Program-made: the position numbers and the translations under genes
Source: Burkholderiaceae bacterium
GTDB lineage: Bacteria > Pseudomonadota > Gammaproteobacteria > Burkholderiales > Burkholderiaceae_C
Assembly (NCBI GenBank): GCA_023954035.1
Contig: JAMLIT010000036.1
Coordinates: 1 to 39,354 of the forward strand
Length of the DNA stretch: 39,354 nt
Direction of reading: 5' to 3'
The notes under the pieces: generated by a model
Databases searched by the model: none
The model's input: the letters and a program-made list of their open reading frames with translations, nothing else
Told to the model about the DNA's origin: nothing
In this document: positions 5,439-8,379 of the stretch, piece after piece
How the letters are laid out: every line of letters starts with the position of its first letter
Position numbering within the stretch: the first letter of the stretch is position 1

Positions 5439-6380
5439 TTGCCTTCAAACCAAAGCCCTTCTGGCGCACTGCCTTCGCGCTTTCGCCGCCCGCGCCTGCT
5501 CATCGTGGGCTGCGGCGACGTGGGCGTGCGCGTGCTGCGGGCCTTGTCGCCGGGCTCTGCCATGCCGCGAATGCGTGTTCTGGCGCTCACCTCCAGCCCG
5601 GAGCGCATGGCCGAATTGCGCCAGCTCGGCGCGCAGCCGCTGCGCGGCAATCTGGACGATGCGGCCACGCTGCGCCGCCTGGCCGGGCTGGCAACGCAGG
5701 TGCTGCATCTGGCGCCGCCACCCCAGGCGGGCACGCAAGACACCCGCACGCGCGCGCTGATGCGCGCCCTGCGCCTGCGCACGCCGCCGCGTGCCCTGGT
5801 GTATGTCTCGACCAGCGGCGTCTATGGCGACTGCGGCGGTGCCTGGGTGAGCGAAACACGCGCCCCGGCGCCCGCCACCGCCCGCGCCGTGCGCCGGGTG
5901 CACGCCGAGCGCAGCGTGCGCCAACTGGGGCGCGCCGGCGTGCGCGCCAGCGTGCTGCGCGTGCCCGGCATCTACGCGCCAGACCGCGAGAACGGCACGC
6001 CCCAGGCGCGCCTGCGCCGAGGCACGCCGGTACTGCGGCCCGAGGACGATGTCTTCACCAACCACATCCACGCCGACGACCTGGCGCGGGCCTGCCTGGC
6101 GGCCCTGTGGCATGGCGCGCCGCAGCGCACATACAACGTGAGCGACGCCAGCGCGTTGCGCATGGGCGAGTATTTCGATCTGGCCGCTGATCTCTATGGC
6201 CTTCCGCACCCGCCCCGTATTGCGCGCAGCGACGCCGCCGAGCAACTGGGCGCAATGCAGCTGAGCTTCATGAGCGAGTCGCGCCGACTCGACGCAACAC
6301 GCATGCTCTGCGAGCTGGGCTTGCGGCTGCGCTACCCCACGGTGCGCGAGGGGCTGCAGGTGGGGAATGAAGTCACCTGA
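5439..6380 (+). CDS. NAD(P)-dependent epimerase/dehydratase-like extended SDR (YeeZ-like)
   Basis: About 313 residues. The N-terminus has a Rossmann motif GCGDVGVRV, followed by STSGVYGDCGG and a C-terminal half with VFTNHIHADDLARACLAAL and YNVSD, as in atypical extended SDRs related to YeeZ. The classical YxxxK pair of active epimerases is not visible after STSGVYG, where an Arg-rich RAVRRVHAERS stretch takes its place. No ATG lies in a sensible position; TTG 5439 is the best guess, 42 bp from the divergent reductase start, and TTG 5400 is a less likely alternative. The start is uncertain. The substrate is unknown. The gene ends just before a large foldback element. Confidence 0.75.
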   Translation: MPSNQSPSGALPSRFRRPRLLIVGCGDVGVRVLRALSPGSAMPRMRVLALTSSPERMAELRQLGAQPLRGNLDDAATLRRLAGLATQVLHLAPPPQAGTQDTRTRALMRALRLRTPPRALVYVSTSGVYGDCGGAWVSETRAPAPATARAVRRVHAERSVRQLGRAGVRASVLRVPGIYAPDRENGTPQARLRRGTPVLRPEDDVFTNHIHADDLARACLAALWHGAPQRTYNVSDASALRMGEYFDLAADLYGLPHPPRIARSDAAEQLGAMQLSFMSESRRLDATRMLCELGLRLRYPTVREGLQVGNEVT

Positions 6381-6383
6381 CGA

Positions 6384-7097
6384 TGTAGCTGCCTCAGAGA
6401 CAAGAACGAGAGCGCGGTTTTGATGGGCTCACGCCTCGTGGCAGAGGGCGGGAGCCGGGATGTGCGCCCGGCGGCGCAGTAACTTTTTTTGCCAAAAAAA
6501 GTCACCAAAAAAGGCTCGCCCTGCTGTCTGCGACCCCTTCGCTGCGCTGCGGGGCAACCTGCGGCGGGGCACTTGCGGGGTGCGCCGTGGAACTCACTTC
6601 GCTGCTGTGCAGCTGCGCTCGAACAACCACGGCGAATCAGTCAACAAAGCATGCGCGCACCTGCGCGCATGCCACCCCGCAAGCACCCCGCCGCAGGCGC
6701 ATCCACAAGGGCGGGGAAGTGCACGGGCCTTTGCTGCGCTCGGCCTGGGGGAAACGGTTCGCCCAATAGCGACGCATCGGGTTTTTTCTTGGGCCGAGCG
6801 AAGCAATGGCCCGTACGGATGTCTGAGCCCTTGTGGCCGTGCCGAGAAGCGCAGGGGCGGGCGGATCAGGGCTCGCGTCTGTTTGAGCACCGCAGGTGCG
6901 AGTTGAGCGAGACCCCGCCCGGCGCGAGCATCGCAGGTTGCTCCGTGCGCAGCACGGGGTCACGGACAGCAGGGTCGCCTTTCTTTTGGCATCTTTTCTT
7001 TGGCGACGCAAAGAAAAGATGCTCGCCTGCCGGGGCGAGACCCGGCTTCCGCCCTTTGCGAAATGGCGCTCTCCAATCTTTGTCGGAGGCAGCTATA
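6384..7097. repeat. 714-bp gene-free foldback element with nested inverted repeats
   Basis: The two ends match each other in inverted orientation over long stretches: 6384-6414 with 7066-7097, 6445-6459 with 7041-7055 (one mismatch in 15), and 6507-6563 with 6932-6987. Inside are further hairpins: 6558-6581 with 6674-6697, a perfect 11-bp pair 6649-6659 with 6662-6672, 6703-6711 with 6832-6840, and 6721-6746 with 6791-6816. Near each end is an A/T-rich hairpin: 6482-6490 with 6494-6502, and a perfect 14-bp stem 6989-7002 with 7009-7022. The open frames crossing it are arginine- and cysteine-rich and look like no protein I know. I remember similar sequences between genes in Burkholderiales and Xanthomonads, but this is recollection only. 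Its nature (mobile element, structured RNA or other) is not known to me. Confidence 0.75.
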
Positions 7098-7107
7098 AAG
7101 TCCCATG

Positions 7108-7167: not shown

Positions 7168-8379
7168 TTAGTGGCCACCCGACAACGAAGCCGCCACCGC
7201 CCGCTTGAACGGCGGAAAGTTCTGCGCCAGGCGCAGGGCCGCGCCGCGCAGCAGGCGCGCCGGGCCGGCGTCTGCGGTGTAGAGCTGGGCGACGAAGTTG
7301 GTGGCCAGGTACAGCGGCAGCGTGGCGCGGCGGTGGCCGCGCTCGTACTGGGCCAGCAGGCGCGGCGCGGCAATGTCGCCGCCGGAGGATTGCGCTGTGC
7401 GGATGGCGTCGGCCAGGGCGGTAATGCCCAGCAGACCGAAGTTGAAGCCATGGGCAGTGACCGGGTGCATGCCCACGGCGGCGTCGCCCACGCAGGCAAA
7501 ACGCTCAGCCACCAGACGGTGTGGGCGCACGCCCACCAGCGGATACAGGTGGCGCGTGCTGGCCAGCTCCATCGCGCCCAGGCGCTCGGAAAAGCGCGCG
7601 GTGAGCGCGCGGCCGAATTCGGGCGCCTCCATGGCCTCCAGCGCTTCGAGCTGGTGGTGCGGCAGCGTCAGCACCACGCAGGAGCGGTGGGCGCCGGAAT
7701 CGGGCGCGTCGTTCATGGGCAGCAGCGCCAGCGTCTGGCCGTAGCCAAACCATTCCCAGGCCACCTGGTGGTGCGGCTCCCGGTGCGTCATGGTGCACAG
7801 CAGCATGGAGCGGCCAAAGTCGTGCATGTCGGCGCCAATGCCCATGGCGCGCCGGGTGCCGGAAAAGCGGCTGTCGGCCGCAATCAGCAAGCGGGCGGAC
7901 AGCGCCTTGCCGCTGGCCAGCCGCACATGCGCGCCCTCAGCGTCGGTGTGGGCATGTGCCACGCTCTCGCCGGCCAGCAGGGTGATGTCGCCATTCTTGT
8001 CTTGTGCGCCACGCAATTCGGCAAAGGCGGCGCGGCGAATCAGGTGGTTGGACACCAGCCAGCCCAGTTCGGAGTGGCGCGAGAGCGTGTGCTCGATGCG
8101 CATGGCGTAGCGCGACATGCCGTCCAGGACCTGGGCGTCGCGCAGGGGCGAGAACGCCGTGGGCTCGTAGCCTTCGATGCGTGCCCACAGACCCAGCGCA
8201 CGCATCTGGTGGGCGGAGCGCTGTGTCAGTGCAATTTCGCGGCCGTCGTAGGCCGGGTTTTCCAGGGCGCAGAGCGGCTGCGGGTCCGCGATGCCGATGG
8301 TCAGCCCGCAGCCAGAGAGCGCGCGCGCCAGGCAGAGCCCTGCCGGGCCGGCGCCGCTGATGAGAATGTCGTAGTCCAT
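7168..8379 (-). CDS. ubiM: FAD-dependent ubiquinone-biosynthesis hydroxylase, UbiH/UbiF/UbiM family, probably UbiM
   Basis: A 403-residue class A flavin monooxygenase. An N-terminal FAD-binding GAGPAGL (residues 9-15) is followed by DGREIALT and, in the C-terminal half, GDAAVGMHPVTAHGFNFGL, the second FAD motif of the UbiH family. These enzymes add hydroxyl groups to the ring of ubiquinone precursors. DGREIALT, in place of the more common DARAIAL, and the MDYDILISGAG start fit UbiM, the broad-specificity hydroxylase of some proteobacteria; I assign this by memory of the subfamily. The ATG at 8379 begins the flavin fold, and the frame upstream lacks family character. It is divergent from a UbiA/MenA-type prenyltransferase gene, which supports a quinone role. 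Confidence 0.82.
   Translation of the reverse strand: MDYDILISGAGPAGLCLARALSGCGLTIGIADPQPLCALENPAYDGREIALTQRSAHQMRALGLWARIEGYEPTAFSPLRDAQVLDGMSRYAMRIEHTLSRHSELGWLVSNHLIRRAAFAELRGAQDKNGDITLLAGESVAHAHTDAEGAHVRLASGKALSARLLIAADSRFSGTRRAMGIGADMHDFGRSMLLCTMTHREPHHQVAWEWFGYGQTLALLPMNDAPDSGAHRSCVVLTLPHHQLEALEAMEAPEFGRALTARFSERLGAMELASTRHLYPLVGVRPHRLVAERFACVGDAAVGMHPVTAHGFNFGLLGITALADAIRTAQSSGGDIAAPRLLAQYERGHRRATLPLYLATNFVAQLYTADAGPARLLRGAALRLAQNFPPFKRAVAASLSGGH

What the first reader, a model, noticed from the sequence alone, without database searches (positions are those of the whole stretch)
6384..7097. Large gene-free foldback element with nested hairpins
A 714-bp spacer is almost entirely self-complementary at several scales: outer arms of about 180 bp that match in inverted orientation in blocks (6384-6414/7066-7097, 6445-6459/7041-7055, 6507-6563/6932-6987), A/T-rich hairpins near both ends, and four or more internal stems (for example 6558-6581/6674-6697 and 6721-6746/6791-6816). 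Nothing coding explains it, and paired arms that differ by scattered substitutions yet still match suggest selection on structure or copying of both arms. It could be a non-autonomous mobile element, a structured RNA, or a recombination/replication element. I recall similar spacers in related genomes but know of no accepted description.
Basis: partly seen in the sequence, partly recalled or inferred. Interest (0 to 1): 0.75.

Follow-up and report, generated by a model that had tools for sequence, protein, structure and literature searches.

The report
Foldback repeat with triple-helix ends
This non-coding stretch is one copy of a repeated, insertion-like DNA element found in many related bacteria, and each of its two ends carries a small hairpin whose sequence is kept able to form a three-stranded helix, which gives a concrete lead on what such palindromic spacers are for.

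Summary
Window 6384-7097 folds far better than shuffles (z -17 to -22), is not coding and matches no Rfam family. It is one copy of a dispersed family: 6 places in this genome, 16 of 24 same-genus genomes, 62 of 150 genomes sampled from the family. Each end is a ~150-bp inward-facing arm with an A/T-rich hairpin, a 6-nt linker and a purine tract. Over 39 distinct arm triples of the genus and 37 of other genera, that tract mirrors the hairpin's own purine strand, far beyond permutation and not as a direct repeat. This is the signature of an intrastrand triplex. The only two such motifs in the 39-kb window are this element's ends. Fold mismatches show no strand bias, the two arms are not homogenised, one site is empty in four relatives, and the element sits inverted in place in 2 of 15 pairs. 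Best reading: a non-autonomous, DNA-level mobile repeat with triplex-hairpin ends, working like a REPIN or BoxC pair. Triplex motifs are known from E. coli; this A/T-rich paired-end family was not found in print. Triplex formation is untested and the mobilising enzyme unknown.

The parts
6375..7105 (.). Probable full extent of the element, outer terminal inverted repeat included (ACCTGACGATGTAGCTGCCTC... on the left, ...GGAGGCAGCTATAAAGTC on the right); right limit approximate; the finding's 6384-7097 lies inside
   Evidence: Ends shared with copies L047, L048, L046, L051, L017; position of ACCTGACGATG; boundary fuzzy
6446..6459 (.). Outer stem P1, left strand (GGGCGGGAGCCGGG)
   Evidence: pairs with 7041-7054
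7041..7054 (.). Outer stem P1, right strand (CCCGGCTTCCGCCC)
6463..6478 (+). Left G/C hairpin H1 (TGCGCC-CGGC-GGCGCA)
   Evidence: this variant and a CTCGCCC-CGGC-GGGCGAG variant recur (32 and 16 of 163 distinct arms)
7022..7039 (-). Right G/C hairpin H1 (CTCGCC/GGCGAG)
6484..6512 (+). Left triplex hairpin, class II order on + strand: pyrimidine strand 6484-6490, loop 6491-6493, purine strand 6494-6500, 6-nt linker 6501-6506, third strand 6507-6512
6980..7017 (-). Right triplex hairpin, class II on - strand / class IV on + strand: third strand 6980-6987 (TTTCTTTT), linker 6988-6993, pyrimidine strand 6994-7001, loop 7002-7009, purine strand 7010-7017
6446..6563 (+). Left arm (inward-facing end module)
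   Evidence: nhmmer arm model; blastn with arm consensus
6932..7054 (-). Right arm (inward-facing end module)
   Evidence: nhmmer arm model; blastn
6558..6697 (.). Internal hairpin module 1 (6558-6582/6673-6697)
6696..6843 (.). Internal hairpin module 2 (6696-6712/6827-6843 and 6723-6745/6792-6814)

Best explanation
The spacer is one copy of a non-coding, dispersed, non-autonomous DNA element of about 0.6-0.75 kb. Its working parts are the two end modules. Each holds a small G/C hairpin and an A/T hairpin that can add a third strand and form an intrastrand triple helix. The ends face each other and the middle holds variable hairpins. I propose that when the duplex opens (lagging strand in replication, or behind RNA polymerase) each end folds locally into its triplex hairpin. 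A trans-acting single-strand-processing enzyme, still unknown, would use these marks to move the element, much as a RAYT is thought to use paired REPs in a REPIN. Recombination between the two inverted ends also flips the element in place. SHOWN: architecture, three-strand co-variation, dispersal, one empty site, two in-place inversions, no RNA-strand bias, no arm homogenisation. INFERRED: that the triplex forms in the cell, the single-strand intermediate, the enzyme, the route of inversion, and that the element is mainly selfish.
For: Multi-copy and patchy: 6 places in G000, 16 of 24 same-genus genomes, 62 of 150 family genomes. Arms found mostly as facing +/- pairs. Mirror co-variation at a fixed 6-nt linker: genus 6.33/8 vs permuted 5.15 (sd 0.155; maximum of 5000 shuffles 5.82); other genera 6.54/8 vs 5.28 (max 5.87); direct-repeat control no excess (4.31 vs 4.42; 4.62 vs 5.05). 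Elements whose two ends have different tails, duplicate loci removed: the stem fits its own tail better in 67, equally in 7, the partner's better in 4 of 78 comparisons (39 genus elements), and 30, 4, 2 of 36 (18 elements of other genera). On a tree without these columns the stem base and tail base of triplet 4 change 30 and 28 times, jointly 33; triplet 5: 25, 26, jointly 27. Generic triplex scan: 57 hits in 110.8 kb of genus loci and 0 in plain letter shuffles; all 18 adjacent pairs face inward. Whole window: 2 hits, both ends of this element; 0 in 100 Markov controls. Flank-to-flank 980 bp in G012 vs 240-286 bp in G018, G007, G021, G004. In-place inversion: G012 vs G018 and Xanthomonas codiaei vs X. 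sp. 3793. No G.U/A.C asymmetry. Own arm rarely closest: 2 of 64.
Against: No clear target-site duplication and no linked transposase. Y1_Tnp (PF01797) occurs in 22 of 26 genus genomes, including 6 of the 8 without elements, and is absent from G003 and G019, which have elements. Several sites are conserved between species and 13 of 15 orthologous pairs show no clear inversion, so movement is slow. Outside the Burkholderiales set the paired inward layout is not the rule: in 80 mostly gammaproteobacterial loci 20 of 43 adjacent pairs face inward and 9 face outward, and most clusters there are single hairpins. One context, between two tandem RND efflux genes, recurs in Burkholderiales and in Dyella and Frateuria, which could mean a host function. 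For the published E. coli motif, Holder et al. saw no triplex footprint in vivo (PMC4666352). Independent pairs on well-supported branches are few: about 5 of 6 (median p 0.06) and 6 of 7 (median p 0.03) go the same way.
Confidence: 0.6

Rival explanations
1. A host DNA element rather than a selfish one: the triplex hairpins act as replication or transcription pause sites, or separate neighbouring genes, and are kept at useful places.
For: Avoids divergent (promoter-promoter) gaps: of 68 elements 31 convergent, 32 tandem, 5 divergent. Same context between tandem RND permease genes in several genera and in gammaproteobacteria. Orthologous sites conserved between species. PIT elements can block DNA polymerase in vitro (stated in PMC4666352, introduction).
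Against: Patchy presence, 8 of 24 same-genus genomes without a match; different sites in different genomes; avoidance of promoters is also expected for tolerated selfish DNA; PIT elements showed no promoter or terminator activity in E. coli (PMC4666352, citing its ref. 41).
Confidence: 0.2
2. A large structured RNA transcribed from the spacer, with U.A-U triple helices protecting its 3' end.
For: Very stable RNA folds. The pyrimidine-type triplex that one strand offers can form in RNA (PMC4666352, introduction). The third base opposite A-T pairs is almost always A (391 of 409 cells; G 10, C 5, T 3), the strict rule expected for the pyrimidine motif on the other strand.
Against: No sense-strand excess of G.U over A.C in 32 tandem-context elements (57 vs 63); also none in 31 convergent ones (98 vs 114); divergent, 5 elements, 17 vs 12. 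No Rfam match. The element is found inverted relative to its neighbours.
Confidence: 0.12
3. Passive by-product of replication slippage and template switching that builds and repairs palindromes, without mobility or function.
For: Long inverted repeats and several nested hairpins; in-place inversions.
Against: Template switching makes inverted or direct copies, not mirror images at a fixed 6-nt spacing; arms of one element are not homogenised; the same arm family recurs at unrelated sites in many genera.
Confidence: 0.05

Closest known systems
Intrastrand triplex motifs: PIT elements / BoxC / TM_ECO (Holder et al. 2015, PMC4666352; Hoyne and Maher's earlier work known to me from memory and from its citation there)
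   Same: Same order of pyrimidine strand, purine strand, linker and third strand; repeated, intergenic; sometimes in inverted pairs. The published TM_ECO pattern occurs beside the A/T motif: 17 hits in 10 of 120 named loci, all 10 Dyella or Frateuria, 14 of the 17 within 900 bp of an A/T hit, and in 4 of 89 loci of this genus and family, always in or just outside the arms. Order G+ A+ A- G- in three Dyella silvae loci and in L137 (G061, another genus of the window's family).
   Different: Here the motif is A/T-rich with a 6-nt linker, sits at both ends of a 0.6-0.75 kb foldback unit, and shows three-strand co-variation over many types; TM_ECO is G/C-rich with a 3-nt linker. A search of that paper's main text for Burkholderia, Acidovorax, Delftia and Xanthomonas gave 0.
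REPINs (REP doublets thought to be mobilised by RAYTs; PMC3116915, passages read)
   Same: Two inverted hairpin-bearing ends with a variable spacer; singlets also occur; intergenic; no own gene.
   Different: Much longer; ends are triplex hairpins in ~150-bp arms; no GTAG/CGTC tag seen at the hairpin; no RAYT correlation.
MITEs (PMC10969869, passages read)
   Same: Short, non-coding, terminal inverted repeats, dispersed, occupied and empty sites.
   Different: No target-site duplication seen, no related insertion sequence found, internally structured.
BRE, Beta-proteobacterial repeat element (PMC3110155, passages read)
   Same: Dispersed intergenic repeat in overlapping hosts (Bordetella, Polaromonas, Acidovorax, Delftia).

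Membership tests
Intrastrand triplex (PIT/TM) motif | Pyrimidine strand, purine strand and third strand in one strand, stem 6-15 nt, short loops | tested here: met
   Both arms of the window and the great majority of family arms
Intrastrand triplex (PIT/TM) motif | Occurrence above chance | tested here: met
   57, 128 and 28 hits in three locus sets vs 0 in plain letter shuffles (the sets were fetched by similarity or by a pattern that contains the motif); in the window 2 vs 0 in 100 Markov controls
Intrastrand triplex (PIT/TM) motif | Triplex forms in vitro | not testable with these tools
   needs CD/NMR/melting
BoxC / TM_ECO | Consensus CCCTCNCCC..GGGNGAGGG N3 GGGNGAGGG | tested here: not met
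   0 hits in the window; present near the A/T motif in some other loci
REPIN/RAYT | Two inverted hairpin ends as one unit | tested here: met
   18 of 18 adjacent pairs face inward in 41 genus loci, 7 of 8 in 20 loci of other genera; in 80 mostly gammaproteobacterial loci only 20 of 43
REPIN/RAYT | GTAG or CGTC tag at the REP hairpin | tested here: not met
   By eye in the arm listing, no formal scan; the tag rule is from the title and abstract start of PMC3733652 in the listing
REPIN/RAYT | Cognate RAYT in the same genome | tested here: not met
   PF01797 in 22 of 26 genomes, in 6 of 8 element-free ones, absent in element-bearing G003 and G019
MITE | Target-site duplication | tested here: inconclusive
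   None evident at one empty-site comparison and in four copies of G186
MITE | Related autonomous element | tested here: inconclusive
   No systematic search; the one insert examined, in L046, is a DDE_3 transposase gene inside a copy
Structured RNA | RNA-strand-specific pairing (G.U over A.C) or known family | tested here: not met
BRE | Sequence homology | not testable with these tools
   Its sequences are in a figure and a supplement, which could not be read here

The most novel reading that the evidence does not exclude
Triplex-hairpin-ended foldback elements form an unrecognised superfamily of mobile DNA across beta- and gammaproteobacteria that includes E. coli BoxC/TM_ECO as its G/C-rich branch. 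The triple helix is an evolutionarily maintained end signal, read by an undiscovered enzyme acting on single-stranded DNA. The three-strand co-variation would be phylogenetic evidence that an intrastrand triplex is under selection in bacteria, which I found nowhere in the papers searched.
Probability: 0.35. Interest if true: 0.85.

Novelty: new variant of a known kind. Interest (0 to 1): 0.62.

Why it matters
Intrastrand triplex repeats have been known in bacteria since about 2000 (PMC4666352 and the work it cites), but with no assigned function. Here many natural variants change stem and third strand together, so the triplex hypothesis becomes directly testable with matched and mismatched natural pairs. 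It also ties loose ends together: palindromic spacers of Burkholderiales and Xanthomonadales, the E. coli BoxC repeat, and REPIN-like paired-end mobility.

Tried and rejected
Coding: ORFs run through the spacer, but 10 of 13 indels between five orthologous pairs are not multiples of 3 (one pair had no indel) and three ORFs have no Pfam match. Rfam: nothing. Phages: no match; plasmids: 6 records, 4 of them the hairpin region alone. E. coli: a 59-nt A/T core gives no match. RAYT link: no correlation. Autonomous version: the insert in L046 is a DDE_3 (IS630-like) transposase gene, an unrelated insertion. Idea that the two ends must carry different triplex types (as reported for paired E. coli motifs): genus 41 of 43 pairs differ, expected same 5.5, 308 of 5000 shuffles as low; other genera 18 of 24 differ with no trend; dropped. 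A first test with longest common substrings did not separate mirror from direct repeats (6.36 vs 6.49); only the fixed-register test did. One search ended with a script error after its main results; one search repeats them. Hairpins taken without any demand on the tail: in the genus 32 of 96 show the mirror at the main register and 1 at another; in other genera 34 of 116 at the main register and 12 at others; in named loci with the search pattern excluded (250 hairpins) the counts are 26 and 17 at two registers, partly G/C types. Rows dropped: 4 genus arms and 1 other-genus arm lacked a parsable tail, while mis-anchored arms were kept and duplicate loci remained in the arm counts (distinct triples were used for the permutations); removes 8 and 5 duplicate or near-duplicate loci; removes 7 and 5; one search leaves out 8 loci and spans outside 150-1200 bp. 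In one search the G021 row was cut wrongly; only G012, G018 and G007 are comparable there.

Literature: searches found no paper on this A/T family. Searching six letter strings of the core found one unrelated paper. PMC4666352: abstract, outline, sections 15 and 16, first parts of sections 3 and 20, and passages. PMC3110155, PMC2267715, PMC10969869, PMC3116915: passages only. All others: search listing.

Full report
What is there. The 714-bp spacer lies between an ORF with an NAD-dependent epimerase domain (PF01370, + strand, ending at 6380) and one with a FAD-binding domain (PF01494, - strand, ending at 7168). It is a nested foldback. It is not a known RNA, three ORFs in it match no Pfam family, and orthologous copies differ by frame-breaking indels (10 of 13).

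It is a family. A search with the spacer gives 15 matches at 6 places in the same genome and matches in 18 of 40 genomes. Sixteen of these belong to the 24 of the same genus, own genome included; the other two are weak matches elsewhere in the order. An iterated profile of one end (148 positions) recovers 109 arms in 59 loci, a few of them the same place fetched twice, mostly as a + arm facing a - arm. The arm consensus is found in 62 of 150 genomes sampled from the family, 56 of 141 genera. An exact pattern for the hairpin core occurs in 22 of 369 genomes of a class sample, with no match of the backward control in the rows listed.

The ends are triplex hairpins. In each arm an A/T hairpin is followed by a 6-nt linker and a purine tract. 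Listing the arms shows many variants, for example (purine strand / tail) AAAGAAAA / AAAAGAAA, AAAAGAAA / AAAGAAAA, AAGAGAAA / AAAGAGAA, GAAAGAAA / AAAGAAAG: mirror images. With the register fixed on the tail alone, 39 distinct genus triples match 6.33 of 8 positions against 5.15 after permuting tails (sd 0.155; highest of 5000 shuffles 5.82). For 37 distinct triples from other genera the numbers are 6.54 against 5.28 (highest 5.87). The same test for a direct repeat shows no excess in either set. Where the two ends of an element have different tails, a stem fits its own tail better than the partner's in 67 of 78 comparisons, equally in 7, worse in 4 (39 genus elements, duplicates removed), and in 30, 4 and 2 of 36 in other genera (the first count, with duplicates, was 71, 8, 5 of 84). 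Hairpins collected without any demand on the tail show the mirror almost only at this spacing in the genus (32 of 96, 1 elsewhere) and mainly there in other genera (34 of 116, 12 elsewhere). On a tree built without these columns the stem and tail bases change together (30, 28, joint 33; 25, 26, joint 27), but well-supported independent pairs are few (6 and 7; median p 0.06 and 0.03). Because arms can be exchanged between copies, the number of independent changes is uncertain.

A mirror tract behind a hairpin is what an intrastrand triplex requires: A.A-T and G.G-C triplets on this strand, or T.A-T and C+.G-C on the other (triplet rules from PMC4666352, section 3). Opposite A-T pairs the third base is A in 391 of 409 cells, T in 3 (triples with at least 5 matches). 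Since T would also serve in the purine motif, this strictness and the A/T richness favour the pyrimidine motif on the complementary strand; that step is inference. In the whole window the motif (7-nt strands, at least 6 of 7 mirrored) occurs twice, at the two ends of this element, against none in 100 Markov controls.

DNA, not RNA, and not arm copying. Inside inverted-repeat helices found without strand bias, sense-strand G.U and A.C mismatches are about equal: 57 and 63 in 32 tandem-context elements; 98 and 114 in 31 convergent and 17 and 12 in 5 divergent ones. The two arms of an element are 0.738 identical (33 elements), arms of different elements of the same genome 0.768, and the own partner is closest for only 2 of 64 arms. 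So the long foldback is not maintained by copying one arm onto the other; each end is kept as a local structure, as for left and right ends of a mobile unit.

Mobility. Five other genomes were searched with flanks of three G012 elements. The flanks of the L047 site lie 980 bp apart in G012 and 240-286 bp apart in G018, G021, G007 and G004; in G022 only one flank was found. The insertion lies next to a small terminator-like repeat that is present in the empty sites of G018 and G007 too, and there is no clear target-site duplication. The window's element is present at the same site in G012 (99%) and, inverted, in G018. A second in-place inversion is seen between Xanthomonas codiaei (L208) and Xanthomonas sp. 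3793 (L218). These are 2 clear cases of 15 pairs compared; most others are collinear and the pairs at the RND site are ambiguous because the element is nearly symmetric. No cognate enzyme was identified; Y1 transposase genes do not follow the element.

Context and kin. Of 68 elements 31 lie between convergent ORFs, 32 between tandem and 5 between divergent ones, with genes called by a simple composition rule. One context, between two tandem RND efflux permease genes (ACR_tran), recurs in G000, G012, G018, G007, G021, in another genus (G045), in Rhodoferax sp. OV413, and in the gammaproteobacteria Dyella sp. C11 and Frateuria sp. STR12. In mostly gammaproteobacterial loci the layout is looser: 20 of 43 adjacent motif pairs face inward, 9 outward, 14 the same way. 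The published E. coli BoxC/TM_ECO pattern sits close to the A/T motif in 10 of 120 named loci, 8 of Dyella and 2 of Frateuria: 14 of 17 hits within 900 bp. It also occurs in 4 of 89 loci of this genus and family. Three Dyella silvae loci and L137 of another genus in the window's family show an outer G/C pair and an inner A/T pair, all facing inward. The window itself has no TM_ECO match.

Verdict. The motif class is known (intrastrand triplex, PIT/TM/BoxC) and the layout resembles REPINs. The A/T-rich, paired-end foldback family with three-strand co-variation was not found in the searches made. I call it a new variant of a known kind. The weakest links are that triplex formation is untested and the mover is unknown.

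Noticed in passing
window 1052, 2814, 7122, 14624, 30649: Small palindromic repeat (about AAAAATAGCTGCYAGCGCTTA-loop-TAAGCGCTRGCAGCTATTTTT) that looks like a two-way intrinsic terminator; it lies beside the window's element, and the L047 insertion is next to one.
   Followed up: partly
L050 1027-1815; L004, L062, L024, L027, L135, L235, L226, L160: Elements sit between two tandem RND efflux permease genes in several genera and in two gammaproteobacteria (ACR_tran confirmed for L050 and L160).
   Followed up: partly
L046 1231-2268: A DDE_3 (IS630-like) transposase gene of 345 aa is inserted inside a copy of the element in G012.
   Followed up: yes
L179, L217, L240 (Dyella silvae); L137 (G061): Nested pairs of G/C-type (BoxC-like) and A/T-type triplex hairpins, all facing inward.
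   Followed up: partly
L173 6542-6695 (Aggregatibacter kilianii): Another triplex variant, CCCCTCTTT..AAAGAGGGG..GGGGAGATTT, as a close inverted pair.
   Followed up: no
L171, L197, L214, L227, L253: The hairpin core appears in contigs labelled Ruminococcus, Sphingobacteriaceae, Selenomonadaceae/Selenomonadales and Mucilaginibacter: either wide transfer or mis-binned contigs.
   Followed up: no
G000:C39:29579-29908 and equivalents: A Y1_Tnp protein, mostly about 235-270 aa, occurs in most genomes of the genus, also in element-free ones.
   Followed up: no
G002, G005, G010, G015: Same-genus genomes at 97-100% completeness without any element match, useful as a contrast set for finding the mover.
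   Followed up: no
L329 2001-2047 (Pasteurella multocida plasmid record): The A/T hairpin region lies between a DUF484 gene and dapF; blastn matched only these 47 bases.
   Followed up: no
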